Assembly (NCBI GenBank): GCA_021204025.1
Contig: JAJQAC010000042.1
Location: 1-64,000 of the forward strand
Direction of reading: 5' to 3'
DNA: 64,000 nt
Source of the DNA: Clostridiales bacterium
GTDB taxonomy: Bacteria; Bacillota; Clostridia; Lachnospirales; Lachnospiraceae
The notes beneath the pieces are model-generated. The model searched no databases. It saw only the letters and a list, made by a program, of their open reading frames with translations, and had not been told where the DNA came from. Below are positions 1 to 11,298 of the stretch, piece after piece. The translations under genes were made by a program, and so were the position numbers. The stretch's first letter is position 1; each line of letters starts with the position of its first letter.

Positions 1-261
1 CCGTGTACTTATCTGCTTTATTTCACCGACGCTGCCGGAAACAAAGTCAGCGACACGCAGAAGGTTATAGCGGATAAGAAAAACCAGGATGGGCGTGAGC
101 GGACATTCCGCTGTAGCTTCAACCTGCGGTCGCGGAAATATAACAGTCGTGACAGCTACTATCTCGTCATAGCGGACGAGAGCGGTCTGCAGGCACCACA
201 GAGAGAAGAATTCCAGATAGACATAGCATTTGCTGTAGATGACTTCGATTTCTTCAGCTGA
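1..261 (+). CDS. pglZ: BREX phosphatase PglZ, C-terminal end (partial)
   Basis: The reading frame is open from the first base and gives 86 residues ending in a stop at 259-261, so this is the 3' end of a gene that starts outside the window. The tail has YYLVIADESG, then FQIDIAF, then an acidic DDFDFF ending. From memory this resembles the C terminus of type 1 BREX PglZ, an alkaline-phosphatase-superfamily protein needed for BREX phage defence. Context supports it: the next gene, 21 bp downstream behind a strong ribosome-binding site, is a wrecked brxL, and pglZ-brxL is the usual order at the end of type 1 BREX operons. The catalytic domain is not in the window, so it is unknown whether the gene is intact. 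The assignment is by motif recall and context. Confidence 0.6.
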   Translation, partial: PCTYLLYFTDAAGNKVSDTQKVIADKKNQDGRERTFRCSFNLRSRKYNSRDSYYLVIADESGLQAPQREEFQIDIAFAVDDFDFFS

Positions 262-514: not shown

Positions 515-826
515 TTTGGATATTCCGTTGCGGCGGAGCCGCTAGTTTGGAGTGGTGCAAGAATAAACAAAAGAGGCTGCCATGAAAAAAATGCATGTTC
601 GAAAGAAGGATGCCCGGCTCCTGAATTTATCGTAAACCCTGGAGATATTATGGTTAAGTTACTGCTTCAAAAGATCAGATTGTTTGCAGACCTGGAGGGG
701 CGACTGAGAGGGTGACTGAGCAGGAACGAAGGGTGATCGAATTACTACAGGAAGATCCAGGATATACCTATGCGAAGCTGGCTGAAAATTTATCGGTTAG
801 CAGGAAAACCGTTTCCGAGAGAAAGA
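515..826 (+). pseudogene. AlbA_2/ATP-binding regulator C-terminal remnant, frameshifted
   Basis: One frame (515 onward) reads GYSVAAEP and later APEFIVNPGDIMVK. After a one-base loss near 659 the sense continues in another frame as TASKDQIVCRPGG, TERVTEQERRVIELLQ and KLAENLSVSRKTVSER. The last part is a winged-helix DNA-binding tail typical of AlbA_2 plus HATPase_c_4 regulators (often annotated as RecG-like putative DNA-binding proteins). The gene lacks its N-terminal two thirds and is frameshifted, so it is not functional. Bases 513-536 repeat, with one base changed in length, the sequence at about 1799-1823, so two related regulator copies or a local duplication contributed to the debris. 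Confidence 0.6.
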
Positions 827-833
827 CTTTTCT

Positions 834-962
834 TTCGATCAGGAGTACCGGCATTTCTATTATCATTATGACCGACTGGACGATACGGCGGACTTTGGAA
901 GCATGGAGGCATCCGGTTATTATGGACTTGGCGTTCGGAGACGATTTTGGATTTGGATTTTG
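834..962 (+). pseudogene. Possible second PglZ-like fragment
   Basis: The frame from 834 reads FDQEYRHFYYHYDRLDDTADF before degenerating. This aromatic and acidic stretch resembles, from memory, an internal segment of BREX PglZ proteins (a VDxxYRxFY-type motif). It is fused directly to the regulator tail that ends just upstream, so it is at most a fragment of about 35 residues. No start, stop context or catalytic motif is present. It could equally be a fragment of another defence protein. Confidence 0.3.
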
Positions 963-1118
963 ATATGTATTGAGAAAACATTTGAGCAATTCATCTTAGA
1001 AAAACCCAAACAATGTTTGGGCAATTGGAGAAAGAACCGCTATTCATGGTTTTACAAAAGCCGTGTAATGTGGCAATATATAAAGTATATGAAACAGGGC
1101 GTAGAGGAGGACTGGAAT

Positions 1119-1554
1119 ATGCCGATTAAGTCTATCAAGGTGTTGAATGTCATGGCATTTCAAAGACAATGGCGTAAAAATAACGGGGATCCGAAAGAGG
1201 GCAAACTTAAGTCTGGAGATAAGATTCATGACGCATTTGAGTTGAACTTTGCCGATGGGATTAATGTGTTGACAGATTTTTGTGGCTACGCACAGTTATA
1301 ATTTTGCTAAATATCTGGAAATCCTGAGGAATGAAAAAGAACAGGTGAAATTTCATACTCTCTACAAAGGATCATCAGAAATGCCAGAGATGCCGGAGAT
1401 ACTAAAAAAGGCCATTAGTGACGATAATAACCGTACCGATGAAGTCTATGGAAACTCCGCTTTTACCATGGAGGAACTGCAGCCGAATCATATTATGCTT
1501 GCGGATGAAGAACTGTTAGATATGGTTTATGATGACTTGGTGAGGGGAAAATGA
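1119..1554 (+). pseudogene. AAA ATPase reduced to its two ends by an internal deletion
   Basis: An AGAGGAGG site (1103-1110) precedes ATG 1119. The first 50 residues (MPIKSIKVLNV, FELNFADGINVL) are the N-terminal strand region of a RecF/OLD-like AAA ATPase, ending just where the Walker A loop should begin. The sequence then shifts frame near 1268 and continues as QIFVATHSYNFAKYLE, the histidine switch region from the C-terminal part of the same fold, and ends with a typical acidic tail. Walker A, Walker B and everything between are missing. The 3' end overlaps the next remnant by ATGA, showing an old two-gene operon. Confidence 0.7.
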
Positions 1555-1631
1555 CACAGATTTATAAAGAAGAAAACGGAGTTTATCAGTTCGATTTTTC
1601 AAAAGCGGAATGGTCTTCGGATCAGATCTGA
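1551..1631 (+). pseudogene. Truncated start of the ATPase partner gene
   Basis: ATG 1551 overlaps the TGA of the broken ATPase gene (ATGA), a sign of translational coupling. The frame gives MTQIYKEENGVYQFDFSKAE and stops after 26 codons, because the sequence runs into debris from another gene near 1605. It looks like the genuine N terminus of a small partner protein, but too little is left to name it. Confidence 0.45.
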
Positions 1632-1846
1632 CGATTGAGCAGATGGAAACGGGGCTGTCCCGGATTCGCAATCGAGGGATTGCGGAAGTCTTCGCACATA
1701 TGCATATGATTGAGGGCTGGGGAAGCGGTATTCCGGATATGTTTATGGATGCACAGCAGTATGGCCTTCCGGAGCCGATTTTAGAGGACAGAGGAAGTGA
1801 TTTTGGATATTCCGTTGCGGCGGGGTTAATCAGGATATATTGGTAA
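1610..1846 (+). pseudogene. HATPase_c_4-type regulator fragment
   Basis: The frame contains RIRNRGIAEVFAHMHMIEGWG, i.e. a RIRNRxIAxxF motif followed by an IEGWGSGIPDMF motif. This is characteristic of the ATP-binding HATPase_c_4 domain at the C terminus of AlbA_2 regulators. It lacks an N-terminal domain and a proper start. Its end (GSDFGYSVAA) repeats the sequence seen near 513-536. It is a fragment joined to the truncated ATPase partner gene upstream. Confidence 0.55.
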
Positions 1847-1977: not shown

Positions 1978-3294
1978 GTGAAACTTAAAAAAATCAAGAT
2001 TACGAATTATCGGTGCTTTCAAGAGGCAAGCATAGATTTTAATGATCATGTAACACTGATTGTTGGAAGAAATGGAGCAGGAAAGACGGCTGTCCTGGAT
2101 GCTGTGGCTGTTTCTATCAGTACATTTTTGGTGGGAATTGATGGTGGGATAAGCAGGAATATTTTAAAGGATGATGCCAGGTATGAGTTTCACGATTTAG
2201 GAGGAACGATTGATCCCCAGCATCAGTTTCCCGTGAGTATCGCGAGTGTTGGAGATTGTTGTGGTGCGCAGGATGTAAGATGGTTTCGTTCTTTGAATTC
2301 TGCCGGCAGCAGGACAACTATTAAGGATGCAGCAGAATTAACAGATATATCTGAAAAGGCACAGAAACAGATTATGGCGGGAGATAAGACCTTAGTGCTT
2401 CCCCTTATATCTTATTATGGGACCGGGCGGTTATATGCACAAAAGAAAGAAAAGCGGAATCTCAAGGCTTTGACAGAATTCAACCGTCAGGTTGGGTATG
2501 TAGACTGTATGGCGGCGGAGTCAAATGAAAAGCTGATGCTGAACTGGTTTCAGAAGCAGACGATGAAGAGTTTGCAGGATCAACAGAAAACAGGAAAATT
2601 GGAACATCCATTGCTTCTAAAGATGGTGGAGAATGCTATTTGTAAAAGCTATGAGAGAATCAGCGGGGCGAGTAAAGCTGCCCTTATATTTGATCTTGAT
2701 ACGCACAGACTGGTCCTGGAGTTTAAGGCATCTGATGGCAGTGTGAAAAAGTTTGCGCTGGATGAAATGAGTGACGGATATAAGAATACGCTAAGTATGA
2801 TTGGTGACATCGCTTACCGAATGGCGGTTTTGAATCCTATGCTGGGAGAACGTGTCTTGGAAGAAACACCGGGAATTGTTCTGATTGATGAAGTGGATCT
2901 GCATCTGCATCCACAGTGGCAGCAGACAATTCTTAGTGATCTTCATGCTGTTTTTCCGAAAGTGCAGTTTATTGTTACATCTCATGCACCGGCGGTGATT
3001 CATTCGGTTTCAAGAGAGCAGATACGGGTTTTGGACAGTGGTGAAATTTATGTGCCGGCAGCTGAGACATATGGGAGAGATGCGAATTCCATTTTAAGAG
3101 AGGTTATGAAAGTATCAGAGAGACCTGTCGAAGTAAAGCAACGCATCGATTGGTTTTATGCCTGCATGGATGAAAACAATTATGAAATGGCGGATGAAGT
3201 GCTGACGGAAATAGAAAATATCGTTGGAACGAATGATCCGGATATTGCAGCGGCAAGAACATCGTTGGAACTGGAAAGATTGTTGGGAGAATAG
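1978..3294 (+). CDS. ptuA: Septu-type defence ATPase PtuA
   Basis: A 438-residue AAA ATPase of the OLD/RecF/ABC-like fold. Walker A is GRNGAGKT near residues 29-36. An ABC-type signature region LDEMSDGYKNT lies near 260. Walker B is GIVLIDEVDLHLHP near 300, and the histidine switch is IVTSHAPAV near 325. In Septu systems PtuA assembles with the HNH nuclease PtuB, and ATP sensing gates nucleic-acid cleavage during phage infection. The start chosen is GTG 1978, behind a GAGGTGACAGGAA site. The next gene begins 3 bp after the stop and encodes an HNH protein, which is what defines the pair. All ATPase motifs are intact, unlike the dead ATPase upstream. Another ATPase-HNH system, such as a retron-type effector pair, is the alternative, but no reverse transcriptase is present. 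Confidence 0.8.
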   Translation: MKLKKIKITNYRCFQEASIDFNDHVTLIVGRNGAGKTAVLDAVAVSISTFLVGIDGGISRNILKDDARYEFHDLGGTIDPQHQFPVSIASVGDCCGAQDVRWFRSLNSAGSRTTIKDAAELTDISEKAQKQIMAGDKTLVLPLISYYGTGRLYAQKKEKRNLKALTEFNRQVGYVDCMAAESNEKLMLNWFQKQTMKSLQDQQKTGKLEHPLLLKMVENAICKSYERISGASKAALIFDLDTHRLVLEFKASDGSVKKFALDEMSDGYKNTLSMIGDIAYRMAVLNPMLGERVLEETPGIVLIDEVDLHLHPQWQQTILSDLHAVFPKVQFIVTSHAPAVIHSVSREQIRVLDSGEIYVPAAETYGRDANSILREVMKVSERPVEVKQRIDWFYACMDENNYEMADEVLTEIENIVGTNDPDIAAARTSLELERLLGE

Positions 3295-3297
3295 CTT

Positions 3298-3972
3298 ATG
3301 ATAGTGATCAACAGAGGGAAAGAACCTGACAGTTTGTTGGAATTTCGCTTGCAGAATCCAGAGGCAGATTATGAGGATACACTATCCAATGTGAGAGACG
3401 ACATCAGGAAACAGATGTGGCAGGAACAGAAATGTTTGTGTGGATATTGCATGAGAAAAATCGATCATGCGAAAGATATGAGGATTGAGCATTGCATACC
3501 AAGACATCCTCAAGGGGAAGTGGATCATGATAAACGTGTGACGCTGAATTTCAAATGGATGCTTGGGGTCTGCTATGGAAATAGTTTGGTGAGGGGCGTA
3601 AAACGGGAAGATACAACATGTGACGCTCACAAAGAAAATGAAGAGCTGACAATTAATCCTTATAATGAACTATCAATAAGAAAGATAAAATACAGGTCAG
3701 ATGGACGCATTTATTCCGATGATCCTGAGATTAATCGAGATGTAACAGAGACCTTAAATCTTAATTGTGAAGCGATTTCCCTGCCGCTGACACGGAAAAA
3801 TGTGTTGATGGCAGAGAAGAATCGAATCATGAAGAAGTGTAAGGGTAAATCGAGGGATGTTTTTATGAGGGAAGTGCAGCGTACATATGTAAGTCTGATG
3901 CAGGAAAGAAATTTAATGCCTTATTGTGGGATCATCATTTCGTGGCTGGAAGATAAACTGAAAATATCATAG
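3298..3972 (+). CDS. ptuB: Septu-type HNH endonuclease PtuB
   Basis: A 224-residue protein resembling the TIGR02646/PtuB HNH family. The N terminus MIVINRGKEPDSLLEFR has the usual opening of this family. The HNH core is CGYCMRKI (about residues 48-55), then RIEHCIPR, whose His is the expected metal or catalytic residue. A later TCDAHKENEELTINPYN segment supplies more zinc or active-site candidates. It would be the nuclease subunit of the PtuAB complex. It starts 3 bp after ptuA, so the two are translated from one message. Length fits the family, and no frameshift or lost motif is visible. The next gene lies 112 bp away with its own ribosome-binding site. Confidence 0.78.
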   Translation: MIVINRGKEPDSLLEFRLQNPEADYEDTLSNVRDDIRKQMWQEQKCLCGYCMRKIDHAKDMRIEHCIPRHPQGEVDHDKRVTLNFKWMLGVCYGNSLVRGVKREDTTCDAHKENEELTINPYNELSIRKIKYRSDGRIYSDDPEINRDVTETLNLNCEAISLPLTRKNVLMAEKNRIMKKCKGKSRDVFMREVQRTYVSLMQERNLMPYCGIIISWLEDKLKIS

Positions 3973-4084: not shown

Positions 4085-6148
4085 ATGGACGAATTTACAG
4101 AGAAAGACGATACCAGACTGGTCGTAAAAAACAAGCTCCGTCAGTATTTTGACGGCCGCATCGTCCGCAAGGACCTGACAAAGCGGATTAAGGAGGGAGC
4201 GAACGTTCCGGTCTATGTGCTGGAGTTCCTGCTGGGGCAGTATTGCAGTTCAGATGATGAGGAAATCATCGAGGCAGGCGTGAATAACGTGAAACGGATT
4301 CTCGCAGATAATTTTGTGCGTCCGGATGAAGCGCAGAAAGTTCTCTCCGTTCTCCGGGAGCGCGGTAGCTATACGGTGATCGACAAGATCACGGTGCACC
4401 TGAATATCAAGGAGGATCGCTACGAAGCGGAGTTTTCCAACCTGGGGATTAAGAGTATTCCGATCCACCCGGATTACCCGTCCAAATATGACCGCCTCCT
4501 GTGCGGCGGTATCTGGTGTATCCTGCAGCTGGACTATGAATTTATTGAAGAAGATAAAAAGAATACGACGCCCATCCGCATCCGCAAGCTGACGCCGATC
4601 CAGATGCCGCATATCGACATGGATGAGATTAAAAACGGCAGGAAAGCCTTTACGAAGGAAGAATGGATCGATGTGCTCCTGCGTTCCACGGGCATGGAGC
4701 CGGAGAAGTTCAGTGACCGTGTGAAGTGGCTGCTTCTGGCGCGTATGATCCCGCTGGTGGAGAATAACTTTAATCTCTGTGAACTGGGACCGCGCAGTAC
4801 AGGTAAGTCGCATATTTATAAAGAAATCTCACCGAACAGTATCCTCGTTTCCGGCGGTCAGACGACCGTCGCGAACCTGTTTTACAATATGTCCACAAAG
4901 ACGGTCGGCCTGGTGGGAATGTGGGACTGCGTGGCATTCGATGAAGTGGCGGGAATTACCTTCAAGGACAAAGACGGTGTCCAGATCATGAAGGACTATA
5001 TGGCGTCTGGTTCTTTTGCCAGAGGACGGGAAGAAAAGGCGGCGTCAGCTTCAATGGCCTTTGTCGGGAATATCAATCAGAGCGTGGACGTTCTGCAGAA
5101 AACTTCCCACCTGTTTGAGCCGTTTCCAGCAGTTATGGCTTATGATACGGCATTCCTTGACCGGATGCACTGCTATATCCCCGGGTGGGAGATCCCGAAG
5201 TACCGGCCGGATTTCTTTACCGATGATTACGGCTTTATTACAGATTACCTCTCTGAGTTTATGCGCCAGATGCGTAAGGAAAATTACGGGGACGCTGCGG
5301 ATCAATATTTCCGGTTTGGGAGTAACTTAAACCAGCGTGATACCATCGCAGTCCGCAAGATGGTATCCGGTTTTGTCAAGCTGGTCTATCCGGATGGGGA
5401 GGTAAGCAAAGAGGAGATTCGGGAGATCCTAGATGTCTCGCTGGAACTGCGCCGCAGGGTCAAGGAACAGCTGAAAAAGATCGGCGGCATGGAATTTTAT
5501 GATGTCAATTTCTCCTACATAGATAATGAGAGCTTTGAGGAAAGCTATGTCTCGGTGCCGGAGCACGGCGGTGGTAAACTGATTCCGGAGGGGATGAATA
5601 AGCCGGGGCATATCTATACCGTCTCCCAGAGCAAGGCCGGCATGGTTGGTGTATATCGTCTGGAGACGCAGGTATTGCCCGGAAATGGGAAATTTGAACG
5701 CACTGGTATCGGCACAGACCGGGACGCAAAGGAAGCGACCAACACGGCATTCAATTATCTGAAGGCGAACAGCAATTCGATCTCCGGGTCGATCAGTACG
5801 ACGACGAAGGATTACATCATCAATTATCAGGATTTGCAGGGTATCGGTATAACAAAGAACCTGGCGCTGCCGACACTGATCGCGATCTGTTCCGCTTCCC
5901 TGGGGAAACCGACCTTAAGCAGCCTGGCTGTGTTGGGAGAGATCAGTATCAGCGGCACCCTGATTAAAGTAAGCGAGTTGGCTAATGTGTTGCAGGTATG
6001 TCTGGACAGCGGCGCAAAGAAGGTGTTGCTGCCGATTACGTCCGCGGCCGATCTGGGCACGGTTCCGTCGGAACTGGTAGGTGCATTCAGTCTGATCTTT
6101 TACTCCACTCCGCAGGAGGCGGTGTTTAAGGCGCTGGGCGTGGAATAA
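4085..6148 (+). CDS. brxL: BrxL, AAA+/Lon-like BREX protein (intact, outside a BREX operon)
   Basis: A 687-residue BrxL. The N-terminal domain contains FVRPDEAQKVLSVLRERG near residue 80. The AAA+ core has a Walker A-like GPRSTGKSH near 238 and Walker B-like VAFDEVAG near 280, with sensor FVGNIN near 325. The C-terminal Lon-protease-like domain includes LSSLAVLGEISISG and a Ser/Lys region (SGAKKVLLP) near 655. BrxL is a DNA-binding AAA+ assembly required for type 1 BREX phage restriction. Here no brxA, brxB, brxC or pglX lies nearby. It instead heads an operon with LRR, kinase, vWA and PP2C genes. ATG 4085 follows GTGGAGGAAT. It is clearly related to, but longer lived than, the dead copy at 283-450. 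Confidence 0.9.
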   Translation: MDEFTEKDDTRLVVKNKLRQYFDGRIVRKDLTKRIKEGANVPVYVLEFLLGQYCSSDDEEIIEAGVNNVKRILADNFVRPDEAQKVLSVLRERGSYTVIDKITVHLNIKEDRYEAEFSNLGIKSIPIHPDYPSKYDRLLCGGIWCILQLDYEFIEEDKKNTTPIRIRKLTPIQMPHIDMDEIKNGRKAFTKEEWIDVLLRSTGMEPEKFSDRVKWLLLARMIPLVENNFNLCELGPRSTGKSHIYKEISPNSILVSGGQTTVANLFYNMSTKTVGLVGMWDCVAFDEVAGITFKDKDGVQIMKDYMASGSFARGREEKAASASMAFVGNINQSVDVLQKTSHLFEPFPAVMAYDTAFLDRMHCYIPGWEIPKYRPDFFTDDYGFITDYLSEFMRQMRKENYGDAADQYFRFGSNLNQRDTIAVRKMVSGFVKLVYPDGEVSKEEIREILDVSLELRRRVKEQLKKIGGMEFYDVNFSYIDNESFEESYVSVPEHGGGKLIPEGMNKPGHIYTVSQSKAGMVGVYRLETQVLPGNGKFERTGIGTDRDAKEATNTAFNYLKANSNSISGSISTTTKDYIINYQDLQGIGITKNLALPTLIAICSASLGKPTLSSLAVLGEISISGTLIKVSELANVLQVCLDSGAKKVLLPITSAADLGTVPSELVGAFSLIFYSTPQEAVFKALGVE

Positions 6149-6181
6149 CGGGATTAAGCTGCCTGGAAGGAGGACAGGCTT

Positions 6182-7276
6182 ATGTTTGAAACGGATTTTG
6201 AAAATCTGCTGTCGACTTATGCGGACGCTGTCTCTGACTGGGGCTGGTTTTCTGCGCTGGTGAAAGATTATTTCCCCGGTCAGCCGATGCAGATTCATCT
6301 GATCTTATCTGCCTACGATCTGGGGATTGTGGGGGATATTCAAACGGCAGTACGGATCAACAACACGTTCGCTTATCGTTTCGTAAAGCGGCTTGTGGAT
6401 GAGTATGGGATCAGCCGGGCGAACGCGGACTGGGCAGTTTCCCTCTGGTGTGTCTGCTATGGACAGCATATGCTGGGAAAGCCTTGCGAGATTAAGATGT
6501 CAGCCAAAGGTGGTTCCCACGCACCGTCGATTCAGGAAGAAAAGCCGGGAGTGCTGACATATGGGGATTTGTTCCGCTATGTGAGATGCCCTGACGGGAA
6601 CGGGCTTGCTGTCTCCGGGTTTACCGGTGACAGCAAAAAAACAATCATTTTCCAGAACAGCTCCGGTGGGAAACCGGTTCTTGAAGTTCTGGATGGCGCG
6701 TTTTCGGAAAGTGAGATCGAGGAAGCGATTTTTACGGAAGGGTTTACCCGGATCGGCAGCCGTGCTTTTTACGGCTGTGGTAGATTGTCCCAGGTCATTT
6801 TCCCGGCATCCATGAAGGAACTGGGCGATTATGCGTTTGCGGGCTGTGGAAACCTGTCTCTGGCTGCGCTGCCGCCGCTTTTGGAAAAGATTGGCGATTA
6901 CAGCCTGTCAGGGACGAGACTGAAAAGCATTGTTATTCCGAAAACATTGTATTGGATTGGGGTGGGAGCTTTTTCCGGCTGTACGGACATAAAGAAAATT
7001 GAAGTGCTGGAAAACATTACAGAACTGCCGGATCAGGTATTTTCCGGCTGTACAGGTCTGACAAAAGTGACTTTGCACGGGAAGCTGACAAAAATTGGTG
7101 CTCATGCCTTTGACGGGTGCAGTGACCTGGAGGAAATCGATATCCCGGACAGCGTGATACAGATTGGGGAAGACGCTTTTATCCGGACACATGACAAATT
7201 TATCCTGATGTGCAGCTTTGGCTCCTATGCGGAGAGCTACGCGAGGAAATATCAATTAAAGTATCAATTAATATAA
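6182..7276 (+). CDS. Leucine-rich-repeat (LRR_5/BspA-like) protein with an unrecognised N-terminal domain
   Basis: A 364-residue protein. Residues 1-100 form a domain I cannot name, with conserved-looking features such as DWGWFSALVKDYFPG, FAYRFVKRLVDEYGI and ADWAVSLWCVCYG, predicted helical. A linker of about 40 residues follows. Residues 165-350 carry six or so LRR_5 repeats with the pattern IGxxAFxGCxxLxxVxxP, for example RIGSRAFYGCGRL and KIGAHAFDGCSDL. There is no signal peptide, so unlike most BspA-like proteins it is probably cytoplasmic and could be a recognition or scaffold subunit. It starts 33 bp after brxL behind AAGGAGG and belongs to the same operon. A sensing role is inference from LRR architecture and context. 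Confidence 0.7.
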   Translation: MFETDFENLLSTYADAVSDWGWFSALVKDYFPGQPMQIHLILSAYDLGIVGDIQTAVRINNTFAYRFVKRLVDEYGISRANADWAVSLWCVCYGQHMLGKPCEIKMSAKGGSHAPSIQEEKPGVLTYGDLFRYVRCPDGNGLAVSGFTGDSKKTIIFQNSSGGKPVLEVLDGAFSESEIEEAIFTEGFTRIGSRAFYGCGRLSQVIFPASMKELGDYAFAGCGNLSLAALPPLLEKIGDYSLSGTRLKSIVIPKTLYWIGVGAFSGCTDIKKIEVLENITELPDQVFSGCTGLTKVTLHGKLTKIGAHAFDGCSDLEEIDIPDSVIQIGEDAFIRTHDKFILMCSFGSYAESYARKYQLKYQLI

Positions 7277-7292
7277 CAGGAGAGGTATTTTT

Positions 7293-7499
7293 ATGAATCT
7301 GGAAGAAAAAGTTGTGACTGAAGATACAGATGAAGATACATCCGTCTATATGTTGATGGATCATTATGTGGATTTACAGTGTATTTTAATGGCTGCTGAC
7401 CGTGATAAAGAATTGAATTATCAGTTGAAAATTTTAAAAATAAAACTGGCAGGTTACGGAATCAATGCGGAATCCTTAAATTTAACTGAGACCCTCTGA
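7293..7499 (+). CDS. Small acidic protein in the brxL operon
   Basis: A 68-residue acidic protein with no recognised domain. An AGGAGAGG site precedes ATG 7293, only 16 bp after the LRR gene, so it is probably translated. The N-terminal 20 residues are rich in Asp, Glu and Thr. The rest (YMLMDHYVDLQCILMAADRD, then LNYQLKILKIKLAGYG) looks like two amphipathic helices, which would suit a small adaptor. No function can be assigned. Confidence 0.6.
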   Translation: MNLEEKVVTEDTDEDTSVYMLMDHYVDLQCILMAADRDKELNYQLKILKIKLAGYGINAESLNLTETL

Positions 7500-7537
7500 G
7501 AATTACAGGAGTTTGTTTGATGGGAGGTGAAGATCCG

Positions 7538-8041
7538 ATGGGTTTACTGGATGCGCTCTTCGGTGGGAATAAGATTCCGCCTGTGACTACCATCCTGCCG
7601 GATGCCGCCAGGCAGGAAATCCTGGCGGGACGGCTGCCGCGGCTGAATACGGATACGGTGTTCTTAAAACGCGGAGAATATTGCTGTTATGTCGATAAGG
7701 CGATCCTTCTGATCGATAAGACAAAAAAGGTGTACCGGCACGTCGGCAACAGTTCTCCGGGGCTGTTTAAAAATGACAGGGTAAATATCGGCGTCGGCGA
7801 TTCCAAAGAATATACGGAGACGCAGCAGTTCAAAGCAATCCTGTATATTACGAATCAGAGGATTATTTTAAACTGCAAGGATCATGGCTTTGACAAATCA
7901 TACAGGCAGTTGTCAGCCGTAAAACCTTTTACGAATGGGATTGAACTGCAGTACGGTGATAAAACCTATACCCTGGTAGTTCCGGATGGGAATATCCCGT
8001 ATCAGGTGATAAAGCTGATTCAGCAGAGGAGGTCATATTGA
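7538..8041 (+). CDS. PH-like (bacterial pleckstrin-homology-type) domain protein
   Basis: A 167-residue protein. ATG 7538 is chosen because GGGAGGTGA (7522-7530) lies 7 bp upstream; a longer frame from 7517 would include that site. The N terminus MGLLDALFGGN is a short amphipathic start. Residues 40-160 alternate short beta strands (YCCYVDKAILLIDK, AILYITNQRIILNC, GIELQYGDKTYTLV) and end in a helix (YQVIKLIQQR), the pattern of bacterial PH-like domains. Such domains often bind lipids or partner proteins. It overlaps the kinase start by one base (TGATG), which points to coupled translation and suggests a shared complex. The PH assignment rests on secondary-structure pattern and is moderately sure. 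Confidence 0.55.
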   Translation: MGLLDALFGGNKIPPVTTILPDAARQEILAGRLPRLNTDTVFLKRGEYCCYVDKAILLIDKTKKVYRHVGNSSPGLFKNDRVNIGVGDSKEYTETQQFKAILYITNQRIILNCKDHGFDKSYRQLSAVKPFTNGIELQYGDKTYTLVVPDGNIPYQVIKLIQQRRSY

Positions 8042-9342
8042 TGGATGGCTTGTTGAAGACAGGGACGATACTGGCATCTGAAAGCGGAAATAAGTATGTG
8101 GTACAAAAACTCCTCGGCGCCGGCGGGCAGGGAGAGGTGTATGATGTGGAAAACGGCGGACGGCATTATGCGCTGAAATGGTATTTTAAAAATTCCGCCA
8201 CCAGTGAACAGAAGCATATCCTGGATAACCTGATTGCAAAGGGGAGCCCGGACGCCTCTTTCCTGTGGCCGGAAGATCTGATTTATCCCAGCCAGGGCAC
8301 ATCCTTTGGCTATATTATGGCGCTGCGTCCGAAAAACTATAAGAGCATCGTGGATCTGATGAAGCGGAGGGTTGATCCGTCCTTTTATACGATTTGCCGC
8401 GCGGCGTTTAACCTTACAAAAGGATATCAGAAACTTCATGCCATGGGATACAGTTATCGGGATATTTCGTTTGGAAATATGTTCTTTGACCCGGACAATG
8501 GGGATGTCCTGATCTGTGATAACGATAATGTATCTGTGAATGGCAGGGATGACAGTGGGGTGCTGGGAACGCCGGGATTTATGGCTCCGGAAATTGTGCT
8601 GGGGAAGGCGAAGCCTTCCCGTAATACCGACCTGCATTCGCTCGCCGTGCTGCTCTTTTATATGTTCATGGTCAATCATCCGCTTAACGGAAGGCTGGAA
8701 GCAAATATCAAATGTATGGACATTCTGGCAATGGAGCGGTTATATGGGACAGATCCGGTATTCATCTTCGATCCGGATGACAAGCGCAACCGTCCGGTCG
8801 CGGGCATCCATGATAACGCAAAGATTTATTGGGATTTGTATCCGGAGGATTTCAAGGAACTGTTTACTCAGGTATTTACGGTTGGTTTAAAATCGCCAAA
8901 CCGGCGTGTGACAGAAAATAAATGGCTGGAGGCGATAGCAAATCTGATGAGTGGAATCATCATCTGCCCGAATTGCGGAGCAGAGGTTTTTTATGATGAG
9001 AGAAAGGAACAGCTTGGAGCTGCTCATATCTGTTGGGGATGTTCTCATACGATAACGGTTCCGGCGAAACTGGTGATCGGGAAACAGAAGATATTGCTGT
9101 CGGCAGGGACAAAGCTGAAGTCGCATCATATTTATGGGGATTTTGATATGGATACAGCGGTAGGCACCGTCGTCCAGAATCCGAAAAATCCCTCCCTGTG
9201 GGGCATTCGCAATGAGGACAAGGTGAACTGGACTTACGAAAAAGCAGATGGGAAGCAGATTCCCGTGGCCGTCGGGCGATCTGCGGGGATTGCGCCGGGA
9301 GTCAAAATACATTTTGGGGAATGTGTGGGCGCATTCATGTAA
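8041..9342 (+). CDS. Ser/Thr protein kinase with C-terminal zinc ribbon (TerY-P triad kinase)
   Basis: A 433-residue protein. The N-terminal kinase domain has the glycine loop LGAGGQGEVYDV, the ATP-binding lysine in YALKWYF, the catalytic loop YRDISFGN (YRD rather than HRD), metal-binding DNDN in place of DFG, and GTPGFMAPEIV for the activation segment and APE motif. An HEPN-like or helical linker follows. The C-terminal zinc ribbon has CPNC and CWGC pairs near 307 and 327. A kinase-plus-zinc-ribbon next to a vWA protein and a PP2C phosphatase is the composition of the TerY-P triads described by comparative genomics. Catalytic residues are present, so activity is expected. The start overlaps the upstream stop. 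Confidence 0.82.
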   Translation: MDGLLKTGTILASESGNKYVVQKLLGAGGQGEVYDVENGGRHYALKWYFKNSATSEQKHILDNLIAKGSPDASFLWPEDLIYPSQGTSFGYIMALRPKNYKSIVDLMKRRVDPSFYTICRAAFNLTKGYQKLHAMGYSYRDISFGNMFFDPDNGDVLICDNDNVSVNGRDDSGVLGTPGFMAPEIVLGKAKPSRNTDLHSLAVLLFYMFMVNHPLNGRLEANIKCMDILAMERLYGTDPVFIFDPDDKRNRPVAGIHDNAKIYWDLYPEDFKELFTQVFTVGLKSPNRRVTENKWLEAIANLMSGIIICPNCGAEVFYDERKEQLGAAHICWGCSHTITVPAKLVIGKQKILLSAGTKLKSHHIYGDFDMDTAVGTVVQNPKNPSLWGIRNEDKVNWTYEKADGKQIPVAVGRSAGIAPGVKIHFGECVGAFM

Positions 9343-9384
9343 AGAGGGAAGCTGACCCTGCGCATACAGAAGGAGGATATGATA

Positions 9385-10146
9385 ATGGCAGAGAAATTAA
9401 AAAGACCAGGAGGGGAGCTTGCCAGCAGGCCGCTCCATTTCTTCTGGATCGTCGATTGCTCGGGATCGATGTACGGAGAAAAAATCGGCACTGTGAACCA
9501 TGCGATCCAGTCTACGATCCCGGATATGGTGGATGCTGCGGAGAACAATCCGAATGCACAGCTTCTGATTCGCACCCTGAAATTTTCTACGGGAGCATCG
9601 TGGGTGACGACAACCCCGGTGCCGGTAGAAGACTTCGCCTGGGATGACCTGGAGGCAGGTGGGGTTACAGACCTGAGAAAAGCATTTGATCTGCTGGCAG
9701 CGCAGCTGACGATACCGCCGATGTCTGACCGGGCTTTGCCGCCGGTACTGGTGCTGCTCTCGGACGGGCAGCCTACGGATGATTATAAGAAATCGTTGGA
9801 TCAGCTGCTGCATCTTCCGTGGGGAAAGAAAGCGGTCCGTATCGCGATTTCCATCGGCCAGGATGCCGATGATTCTGTCCTGACGGAGTTTACCGGCAAC
9901 CGGGAACTGGTCTTACAGGCAAATAATGCGGCCATGCTGACAAAAATGATCAAATGGGCGTCAACAGCCGCTTCTATGGTATCTGCGCCGGCAAGCAGAA
10001 TCAAACAGGATGATAAAGGCGCGGATCGACCGGGTTCGGCTCCGGCTGATGGCCTGCTTCCTCAGGGCGGAGGGAAAGCGCCGCTGGTTCTTGATATGAA
10101 CAATATCCCAAATCCGGATGATATCGGGGAAGATGATGTCTGGTAA
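9385..10146 (+). CDS. TerY-like von Willebrand factor A domain protein
   Basis: A 253-residue protein. The vWA domain has a complete MIDAS: DCSGSM near residue 24, a Thr in GGVTDLRKAF near 93, and an Asp in LLSDGQPTDD near 130. It therefore should bind Mg2+ and a partner. The C-terminal 60 residues are low-complexity and acidic, ending in NPDDIGEDDVW. ATG 9385 lies 8 bp after AAGGAGG; the ATG at 9379 would be too close. In TerY-P triads the vWA protein is thought to be an adaptor controlled by the adjacent kinase and phosphatase. The PP2C gene starts 14 bp downstream. Confidence 0.8.
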   Translation: MAEKLKRPGGELASRPLHFFWIVDCSGSMYGEKIGTVNHAIQSTIPDMVDAAENNPNAQLLIRTLKFSTGASWVTTTPVPVEDFAWDDLEAGGVTDLRKAFDLLAAQLTIPPMSDRALPPVLVLLSDGQPTDDYKKSLDQLLHLPWGKKAVRIAISIGQDADDSVLTEFTGNRELVLQANNAAMLTKMIKWASTAASMVSAPASRIKQDDKGADRPGSAPADGLLPQGGGKAPLVLDMNNIPNPDDIGEDDVW

Positions 10147-10160
10147 GAGAGGTGATTGAT

Positions 10161-10976
10161 ATGGTTCGTATGATCTGCGGGCAAAGCGTCCGGGGAGCGT
10201 CTCATATCCGCAATGATAAGCCTTGTCAGGATAGTTTTAAAGTCCGGGAAATTTCCGATACCGTATCACTGGTGGCAGTTGCTGATGGTCATGGCAGTGA
10301 ATCCTGCCCGTTCAGTAAGACAGGTGCCAAAATTGCGGTCAATACTTTTTGCACCGTCGTCGGACAGCTCTGGGAAAACCTTTCGGACAATCAGGAATTC
10401 TTTATGAGCTATCTGAACCGCGAGGGTGAAGTCAGGGTCGCGCAGGCGATTGATGAGGAATGGAAGCGACGGGTTTGGAAAGCTCACCTGGATAATAAAC
10501 GGGAAAAACCGCTGGATGCGGAGGGAAAGCCGGATAAAGCGGCAGTTTACCGGATGTACGGGACAACTCTGCTGGGCTTACTCCTTACGCCGGATTTCCT
10601 GTTCGCGTTCCAGATCGGTGATGGAGATATTCTGTATCTTAACGCGGATCAGGTACAGCCTGTGATTGAGGCCGATAAAATCCTTGGCACAGAGACACAT
10701 TCTCTTTCCAGTGAGAATGCGTGGAAGAAGGCAATTACGGTTGTGCGCAGGCGGGAGGAGGGAGACTTTCCTCAGCTCTATCTGATGGCAACGGATGGCT
10801 TTTCCAATAGTTATCCTTCGACGGAGGGTTTTGAAGGGACATGCCGTGATTATTTTCATATGATACAGGAACATGGTTTTGAGACAGTGGCGGGAAATCT
10901 GAAAGACTGGTTATCAGAAACGAGCGAGCTGGGATGTGGGGATGATATCACGGTAGTAATGAGCTATTTCTGTTGA
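10161..10976 (+). CDS. PP2C-family Ser/Thr phosphatase (TerY-P triad)
   Basis: A 271-residue PP2C phosphatase. Metal-binding motifs are in place: CQDSF near the N terminus, VADGHGS near residue 40, IGDGDILYL near 155, ATDGFSNSY near 212 and GCGDDITVVMS at the C terminus. It should dephosphorylate substrates of the kinase two genes upstream. ATG 10161 is chosen since the GAGAGGTG site (10147-10154) would lie inside the longer frame from GTG 10152. It sits between the vWA gene and the small Cys-rich gene with gaps of 14 and 16 bp. Confidence 0.82.
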   Translation: MVRMICGQSVRGASHIRNDKPCQDSFKVREISDTVSLVAVADGHGSESCPFSKTGAKIAVNTFCTVVGQLWENLSDNQEFFMSYLNREGEVRVAQAIDEEWKRRVWKAHLDNKREKPLDAEGKPDKAAVYRMYGTTLLGLLLTPDFLFAFQIGDGDILYLNADQVQPVIEADKILGTETHSLSSENAWKKAITVVRRREEGDFPQLYLMATDGFSNSYPSTEGFEGTCRDYFHMIQEHGFETVAGNLKDWLSETSELGCGDDITVVMSYFC

Positions 10977-10992
10977 TGGGAGGTGAGTGCCT

Positions 10993-11247
10993 GTGGCGAT
11001 GCCGGAAGCAACTGTGGCAATCTGCAAATGTAAAGAGACACATAAAACATATGGGGTTCGCTTTGAGAAAACAGCACCCGGGCATTGGAAGTATACCTGG
11101 GCGTTTCCGATGAAGGAAGCGGCGGCACGCCGCGAAGGATACGAGGGCACAACGATTGACGGTGCTATCGAGACGGATGCGGGATATCCTGGATGTCCTT
11201 ACTGTGGGACAAGCATGGGATGCAGGGAAGGATCAGCAGCACTATGA
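10993..11247 (+). CDS. Small Cys-rich, probable zinc-binding protein
   Basis: An 84-residue protein if started at GTG 10993, which lies 7 bp after GGGAGGTG; GTG 10987 and ATG 10999 are alternatives. It has CKC near the N terminus and CPYCGTSMGC near the C terminus, likely one zinc site. Between them lies a YGVRFEKTAPGHWKYTWAF segment of strands. Small zinc-binding proteins accompany some TerY-P triads, and this could be a substrate or adaptor. It is the last gene of the operon, followed by a terminator hairpin. Confidence 0.55.
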   Translation: MAMPEATVAICKCKETHKTYGVRFEKTAPGHWKYTWAFPMKEAAARREGYEGTTIDGAIETDAGYPGCPYCGTSMGCREGSAAL

Positions 11248-11298
11248 AACAATCACAGGGTACCGGAAGAATTATGATAACACTGACAGATACATAAT

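What the first reader, a model, noticed from the sequence alone, without database searches (positions are those of the whole stretch)
4085..11247. Stand-alone BrxL fused into a kinase/vWA/PP2C (TerY-P) operon: candidate new defence system
Seen: eight co-directional genes with gaps of -1 to 42 bp and one terminator. They encode intact BrxL, an LRR protein, a 68-residue protein, a PH-like protein, a Ser/Thr kinase with zinc ribbon, a vWA protein with full MIDAS, a PP2C phosphatase and a Cys-rich protein. Known: BrxL is the AAA+/Lon-like protein of type 1 BREX; kinase, vWA and PP2C together make a TerY-P triad. Inference: a phosphorylation switch with an LRR sensor controls a BrxL effector without methylation or other BREX genes. 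I know of no described system with this composition.
Basis: partly seen in the sequence, partly recalled or inferred. Interest (0 to 1): 0.88.

Follow-up and report, generated by a model that had tools for sequence, protein, structure and literature searches.

The report
TerY-P kinase module beside BREX brxL

Summary
The genes are real and in order: brxL, BspA-type LRR, a 68-aa ORF, PH-fold protein, Ser/Thr kinase with C-terminal zinc ribbon, vWA, PP2C, Cys-rich. The arrangement is conserved: LRR-kinase-vWA-PP2C directly follows brxL in 8 of the 80 closest BrxL loci, and, interrupted by four ORFs, in one more genome.

"Stand-alone BrxL without other BREX genes" fails. The window starts at a contig edge inside pglZ; next comes a relic of a different brxL; another contig ends with brxA-brxB-brxC-pglX(5' end), pglX breaking at a multi-copy repeat. 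Of 80 BrxL loci, 75 carry a PglZ-, PglX- or BrxC-cluster gene in the fetched DNA; 6 of the 8 cassette loci have pglZ.

Best reading: a TerY-P module with added LRR and PH proteins, housed at the 3' end of type 1 BREX, probably an auxiliary defence arm. The Cys-rich gene is a truncated TerY_C protein; its usual transglutaminase-like neighbour is nearly gone. A diverged BREX locus (L169; BrxL 44%, kinase 37%) also has TerY-P after brxL. None of my literature searches found this pairing described.

The parts
1..261 (+). 3' end of pglZ (last 86 codons), cut by the contig edge
   Evidence: 95% to residues 783-868 of the L035 PglZ; only PglZ match in the genome
277..450 (+). relic of the resident BREX brxL (pieces of about residues 92-114 and 621-650 of the 703-aa L035 ORF)
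   Evidence: 22 of 23 residues identical to the L035 BrxL in the first piece, against 18 of 23 to the intact window BrxL
712..1846 (+). fragments similar to two accessory gene clusters of other BREX loci (c4, Schlafen/AlbA_2 type; c11, OLD-like AAA type)
   Evidence: the 100% c11 hit is the window's own sequence and does not count; cluster annotation from single members
1978..3294 (+). PtuA (Septu ATPase)
   Evidence: PADLOC PtuA 565.8 bits
3298..3972 (+). PtuB (Septu HNH)
   Evidence: PADLOC PtuB 223.7 bits
4085..6148 (+). intact brxL of a second BrxL lineage
   Evidence: 79.6% to the L035 BrxL, 93% to L001; tree
6182..7276 (+). protein with a helical N-terminal domain (about 1-100) and BspA-type LRR solenoid
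   Evidence: PF13306; AlphaFold pLDDT 85.7
7293..7499 (+). 68-aa ORF, not conserved
   Evidence: 0 of 8 cassette loci; GC 0.34
7538..8041 (+). PH-fold protein (ORF listed from 7517; relatives support the ATG at 7538)
   Evidence: alignment, model, fold search
8041..9342 (+). Ser/Thr protein kinase with C-terminal zinc ribbon (ORF listed from 8038)
   Evidence: PF00069; alignment; kinase profile to PDB
9385..10146 (+). TerY-like vWA protein with intact MIDAS (ORF listed from 9379)
   Evidence: PF00092; alignment
10161..10976 (+). PP2C phosphatase (ORF listed from 10152)
   Evidence: PF13672; alignment
10987..11247 (+). truncated TerY_C metal-binding protein; similarity to relatives' DNA stops at about 11207, followed by a weak trace of the end of the transglutaminase-like gene (11211-11282)
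   Evidence: PF15616 E=0.0046, below cut-off; full-length relative L103 E=4.3e-8 above cut-off; alignment (trace E=0.016)

Best explanation
The locus is the 3' end of a type 1 BREX region. A TerY-P phosphorylation module (kinase-zinc ribbon, vWA, PP2C), in a version that adds a BspA-LRR protein and a PH-fold protein and, in relatives, a TerY_C and a transglutaminase-like protein, is attached immediately downstream of brxL. In this genome the resident BREX is damaged: pglX breaks at a multi-copy repeat, only the 3' end of pglZ is assembled, the resident brxL is a relic. An intact brxL of another lineage plus the module lies behind a Septu pair. Most likely mechanism (inferred): the LRR and PH proteins sense an infection-dependent cue or anchor the module; the vWA protein assembles kinase and phosphatase; a shift of the kinase/phosphatase balance phosphorylates a target and stops phage growth. 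It works as an auxiliary arm next to BREX, sharing transcription with brxL and not strictly needing it. Shown: gene content, order, conservation, BREX context, conserved catalytic residues. Inferred: co-transcription, sensing, target, antiphage activity, and that C4 and C46 are neighbours.
For: Cassette directly after brxL in 8 of 80 loci, with brxL-LRR gaps of at most about 70 bp where starts are clear (coordinates); 6 of the 8 have a PglZ-cluster gene in the fetched DNA. Whole genomes: PglZ in 7 of 9 cassette genomes, long PglX in 7 of 9. Own BREX genes split over contigs C4 and C46. The kinase, vWA and PP2C meet the triad definition given in PMC11090510. TerY-P is reported antiphage by itself in PMC7699616 and PMC10889362 (passages seen). 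Auxiliary nucleases in BREX loci are a general theme (PMC12839542, section 35 part 1). An independent BREX + TerY-P arrangement in L169. Close module relatives without BrxL: L103, L104, L148, and no BrxL match but Lon-like 26% hits in the genomes of L103/L104.
Against: No test of transcription or activity. The link C4-C46 is an inference across a gap. The 10 cassette BrxLs cluster on the BrxL tree and kinase identity follows BrxL identity but not PglZ identity (6 loci), which would fit a functional tie to BrxL rather than a mere passenger. In the window genome and L008 brxL and module persist without a detectable complete BREX, which a purely BREX-dependent arm would not explain.
Confidence: 0.55

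Rival explanations
1. BrxL is the output of the phosphorylation switch: the kinase/PP2C pair controls BrxL (or BrxL's DNA loading) and brxL plus module move as one functional unit, with or without BREX.
For: All 10 cassette BrxLs lie in one 15-row branch of the BrxL tree (5 label changes, shuffled mean 9.6, 0 of 500 as low). Kinase-BrxL rho 0.69, Mantel p 0.03; kinase-PglZ rho 0.00, p 0.35 (6 loci). In the window a foreign brxL came with the module while the resident brxL is dead. L008 keeps brxL and module with no PglZ match and only two short PglX pieces in the genome. L169 pairs them independently.
Against: The 15-row branch has SH-aLRT 93 only (quick tree, below its 95 mark) and holds 5 BrxLs without the cassette; BrxL-PglZ rho is nearly as high (0.64, p 0.05). 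The L008 cassette is closer to L024's (kinase 87%) than their BrxLs are (77%), so modules also swap between BrxLs. L103/L104 have the module without BrxL. L178 and L179, with BrxL 67-76% like L169's, lack TerY-P.
Confidence: 0.25
2. Passenger in a decaying defence island: brxL plus module is a leftover of a second BREX copy or of recombination, no longer a working system in this genome.
For: pglZ fragment, brxL relic, fragments at 712-1846, truncated TerY_C gene and lost transglutaminase-like gene all lie within 12 kb.
Against: brxL, LRR, PH, kinase, vWA and PP2C frames are intact, key residues conserved, dN low relative to near-saturated dS.
Confidence: 0.15
3. One reading: a new stand-alone defence system of BrxL plus TerY-P that never involves BREX core genes.
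For: No complete PglX or PglZ in the own assembly nor in the L008 genome.
Against: BREX genes in the own genome and PglZ plus long PglX in 6 of 9 cassette genomes.
Confidence: 0.05

Closest known systems
TerY-P triad (vWA, PP2C, STK with zinc ribbon)
   Same: All three proteins, with a C-terminal zinc ribbon on the kinase as described in passages of PMC11090510
   Different: Extra BspA-LRR and PH-fold proteins; TerY_C is a separate gene (truncated here); attached to brxL
Stand-alone antiphage TerY-P (Gao et al. 2020, as told in PMC7699616, PMC11090510 and PMC10889362)
   Same: Kinase, phosphatase and vWA gene set
   Different: PMC11090510 says the tested modules carry an OB-fold on the kinase instead of a zinc ribbon; here a zinc ribbon followed by about 95 residues whose fold I did not test
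Type II / III-A CoCoNuT loci (PMC11090510, passages)
   Same: A TerY-P triad joined to a restriction-type system as a frequent but non-core add-on
   Different: There with McrBC-type CoCoNuT genes, here with BREX
Type 1 BREX (PMC12839542)
   Same: brxA-brxB-brxC-pglX-pglZ-brxL genes; cassette follows brxL
   Different: Module not mentioned in the passages and section part that I saw; the word TerY has 0 occurrences in that main text (listing)
Septu (PtuAB)
   Same: PtuAB upstream at 1978-3972
   Different: A separate accessory; PtuAB also lies upstream of pglZ in L013, L024, L028 and L069

Membership tests
TerY-P triad | TerY-like vWA protein with MIDAS | tested here: met
   PF00092 24.0 bits, cut-off 23.8; D26, S28, S30, T97, D129 invariant in 9
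TerY-P triad | PP2C-like phosphatase | tested here: met
   PF13672 E=2.1e-36
TerY-P triad | Ser/Thr kinase fused at its C-terminus to a zinc ribbon | tested here: met
   PF00069 E=5.1e-17; weak zinc-ribbon hits at about 303-338; Cys 310, 313, 332, 335 invariant in 9
TerY-P triad | TerY_C metal-binding domain (frequent companion; my reading) | tested here: inconclusive
   Window protein truncated, E=0.0046 below cut-off; full-length relative L103 passes the cut-off
Type 1 BREX (as a working system in this genome) | intact brxA, brxB, brxC | tested here: met
   PADLOC 230.6, 254.8, 1234.8 bits on contig C4
Type 1 BREX (as a working system in this genome) | intact pglX and pglZ | tested here: not met
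   Only pglX codons 1 to about 93 and the last 86 codons of pglZ are in the assembly; the missing part could lie in an assembly gap
Type 1 BREX (as a working system in this genome) | brxL | tested here: met
   Intact BrxL at 4085-6148, but of a lineage other than the resident relic
Antiphage TerY-P system | protects against phage | not testable with these tools
   needs a phage challenge
Antiphage TerY-P system | OB-fold C-terminal to the kinase | not tested
   only the PH and LRR proteins were modelled

The most novel reading that the evidence does not exclude
brxL plus the LRR/PH/TerY-P cassette is a self-sufficient, exchangeable unit in which a phosphorylation switch gates BrxL. It plugs into BREX loci in the brxL slot but also works after BREX has decayed, as in the window genome and L008, and arose at least twice (L169).
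Probability: 0.15. Interest if true: 0.8.

Novelty: new variant of a known kind. Interest (0 to 1): 0.45.

Why it matters
What BrxL does in BREX is unsettled: PMC12839542 says that it is required in some BREX systems and not in others (passage). A lineage of brxL that carries a kinase/phosphatase switch and LRR and PH proteins gives a concrete handle on whether BrxL, or BREX as a whole, is regulated by phosphorylation. It also adds BREX to the restriction-type systems that acquire TerY-P modules, as CoCoNuTs do. The case further shows how a contig edge can make part of a BREX locus look like a stand-alone system.

Tried and rejected
Considered and rejected: a brand-new stand-alone system (BREX genes found in the same genome); the 68-aa protein as a component (0 of 8 cassette loci); the Cys-rich protein as an intact part (truncated); chance neighbourhood (conserved order in 8 of 80 loci).

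Led nowhere or weak: promoter and terminator scan, 7 promoter-like sites against 9.1 in shuffles and 9 terminator-like against 6.2, gives no support for or against one transcript. BrxL on plasmids: 30 of 311 records listed, no neighbourhoods fetched. The kinase in phage records: 1 record at 29%, not followed. Viral-contig scan with the vWA alignment: 3 loci; L180 has vWA 52% and no other match to my 10 window proteins; L181 and L182 not examined. No structure search with the LRR model; no complex prediction was possible. PMC10855318 and PMC10542128 were seen only in search listings.

Limits: gene calls in relatives are the longest non-overlapping ORFs. L058 fell out of the BrxL tree because an antisense ORF was preferred, so the tree has 79 of the 80 loci plus the window and L102. 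Clusters c1, c2, c3 are named from single members (L024, L028, L014). L101 appears to be the same record as L001, and L147 the same as L024 (equal contig lengths); neither was counted twice. The kinase tree has long-branch warnings.
Full report
1. The genes. Pfam, PADLOC and NCBIfam identify BrxL, a BspA-type LRR protein, a protein kinase, a vWA protein and a PP2C phosphatase. The PH-like protein is weak by sequence (E=0.15), but its model (pLDDT 78.5) returns mostly PH, PTB and FERM-F3 structures among the 50 listed, best E 2.6e-3 and none at or below 1e-3. The LRR protein has a helical N-terminal domain of about 100 residues before the solenoid (pLDDT 85.7). The Cys-rich protein matches TerY_C below the cut-off. 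Relatives are longer: their CPYC motif is followed by further Cys pairs that the window protein lacks. DNA similarity to L001, L002 and L004 stops at about 11207, and the next bases (11211-11282) weakly match the last 24 residues of the transglutaminase-like protein of L001 (45.8%, E=0.016). That protein (c12; PF01841 for the L001 member) follows the cassette in 7 of 8 loci, L005 ending at its contig edge. I infer a deletion that removed the end of TerY_C and most of the next gene.

2. The surroundings. The window is bases 1-64000 of contig C46, 67,820 bases. Bases 1-261 are the 3' end of pglZ, 95% to L035. At about 277-450 lies a brxL relic; its first piece agrees with the L035 BrxL at 22 of 23 positions and with the intact window BrxL at 18 of 23. 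The intact window BrxL is 79.6% identical to that of L035 but 93% to that of L001. So two brxL lineages met here. PtuAB (Septu) lies between, in DNA of 42% GC against 51% in brxL. Contig C4 (28,203 bases) ends with brxA, brxB, brxC (PADLOC 230.6, 254.8, 1234.8 bits; BrxC 97% to L035) and pglX codons 1 to about 93 (90% to L035). The pglX frame then runs into a stretch found at five contig ends of the genome, as an insertion-sequence end would look; the element was not identified. No other part of PglX or PglZ was found in the genome. Bases 1-150 of the window are single copy. That C4 and C46 are neighbours is an inference from gene order and orientation and from L035, which holds the matching genes in one stretch.

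3. Conservation. Of the 80 best BrxL loci, 8 have LRR, kinase, vWA and PP2C directly after brxL in the same order: L001, L002, L004, L005, L007, L008, L024, L043. PH was found in 7 of the 8 (not L007), TerY_C by the window query in 3 of 8, the 68-aa ORF in 0 of 8. L102 (G322) has the set too, with four other ORFs between LRR and PH. L009 has brxL plus an LRR gene, L025 an LRR fragment after brxL. Across the 80 loci, a PglZ-cluster gene is in 74, PglX in 57, BrxC in 28, at least one in 75; the five without are L002, L018 and L045, where the contig starts within 1 kb of brxL, and L008 and L037, with 10 kb upstream. Whole-genome searches of 16 genomes, 9 of them with the cassette: PglZ matches in 7 of the 9 (one in-frame TAG in G322), not in those of L002 and L008; long PglX matches in 7 of the 9, only weak or short ones in those of L001 and L008; both in 6 of 9. 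The L008 genome also has a distant BrxL-like match (27%), and a PglZ far from my query would be missed.

4. Association. On a quick BrxL tree of 81 rows (79 of the 80 loci, window, L102) the 10 cassette BrxLs fall in one branch of 15 rows (SH-aLRT 93, below the program's 95 mark); the label needs 5 changes against 9.6 in shuffles, 0 of 500 as low. Among the six cassette loci with a usable PglZ, kinase identity follows BrxL identity (rho 0.69, Mantel p 0.03), BrxL follows PglZ about as well (0.64, p 0.05), and kinase does not follow PglZ (rho 0.00, p 0.35). Against strict co-inheritance: the L008 and L024 kinases are 87% identical, their BrxLs 77%. Kinase searches: 12 of 397 genomes of the family sample match at E<=1e-40; contexts of the 11 others were fetched and BrxL lies beside the kinase in the own genome, G130 (L001) and G322, so 3 of 12. 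The phylum sample had 3 of 398: besides the own genome, G692 shows no BrxL beside it in a fetched stretch, and G425 none in its short locus. The order sample had 41 of 392; of the 19 contexts I fetched from it only G1071, apparently the L024 record, has BrxL. So most kinases of this broad family are not beside BrxL. In the kinase tree of 46 rows, nine BrxL-linked kinases form a supported clade (97/95), sister to L103/L104, and L043 pairs with L148 (LRR-PH-kinase-vWA-PP2C with no BrxL upstream); the label needs 3 changes, shuffled mean 10.0, 0 of 500 as low; the run warns of long branches.

5. Outside BREX and outside this lineage. In L103 the module (kinase-LRR-vWA-PP2C-TerY_C) follows an Rnf operon, and L104 has the same order by similarity; their genomes have only Lon-like 26% matches to BrxL and no PglZ match. 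Two viral-collection contigs, L169 and L170, with identical proteins, carry brxC-pglX-pglZ-brxL-TerY_C-kinase, and L169 continues with vWA-PP2C (L170 ends in the kinase); BrxL 44% and kinase 37% to the window's. I count them as one case. The kinase groups with a Prevotella plasmid kinase, and the closest plasmid BrxLs are from Tenacibaculum (53.5%), so a Bacteroidota host is likely but not shown. L178 and L179, with BrxL 67 and 76% to L169's, have no TerY-P.

6. How it probably works. Shown: intact kinase, vWA and PP2C with invariant key residues, low dN where the ratio could be computed (11 of 18), the BREX setting. Inferred: the module responds to infection through the LRR and PH proteins and changes the phosphorylation state of a target, as an auxiliary arm of BREX. 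TerY-P modules are reported antiphage on their own (PMC7699616, PMC10889362, passages), and BREX loci commonly carry auxiliary effectors (PMC12839542, section 35 part 1). Whether BrxL is the target is open.

7. Literature. The held library has no paper with both BrxL and TerY. BREX plus TerY gives 10 papers; passages of three (PMC11090510, PMC10889362, PMC12458937) do not describe a BREX plus TerY-P operon; PMC10855318 and PMC10542128 were seen in listings only. PMC12839542: outline with abstract, passages, and section 35 part 1. Other searches. The founding TerY-P paper (Anantharaman et al. 2012) is not held and could mention BrxL; supplements could not be read. So 'not described' means in what I could search.

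8. Verdict. This is a new variant of a known kind: type 1 BREX with an LRR/PH-extended TerY-P module after brxL, in a genome where BREX itself appears damaged.

Noticed in passing
L086 17862-18204 (end of contig C4): pglX breaks after about codon 93 at a stretch found at five contig ends of the genome, as an insertion-sequence end would look. The element was not identified.
   Followed up: partly
window 1978-3972; L013, L024, L028, L069: PtuAB (Septu) lies upstream of pglZ in four other BREX loci; in the window it lies between the brxL relic and the intact brxL.
   Followed up: partly
L103 and L104: Kinase-LRR-vWA-PP2C-TerY_C module directly after an Rnf operon, in two genomes without BrxL or PglZ matches.
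   Followed up: partly
L169, L170 (viral collection): brxC-pglX-pglZ-brxL followed by TerY_C and kinase, and in L169 vWA and PP2C, far from the window's lineage.
   Followed up: partly
L001 2325-8762: A 2145-aa ORF between pglZ and brxL, next to an ORF similar to the window's LRR protein; not annotated.
   Followed up: no
L043 1864-2979: SEFIR/TIR protein between the BrxC- and PglX-cluster genes of a BREX locus.
   Followed up: no
L037: A BrxL locus without the cassette and without PglZ, PglX or BrxC-cluster genes in the fetched DNA, 10 kb upstream included: another candidate for BrxL apart from BREX.
   Followed up: no
L086 9272-12556: 1094-aa helicase-like protein (best PADLOC match MkoA, 182.5 bits, partial) just upstream of brxA.
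   Followed up: no
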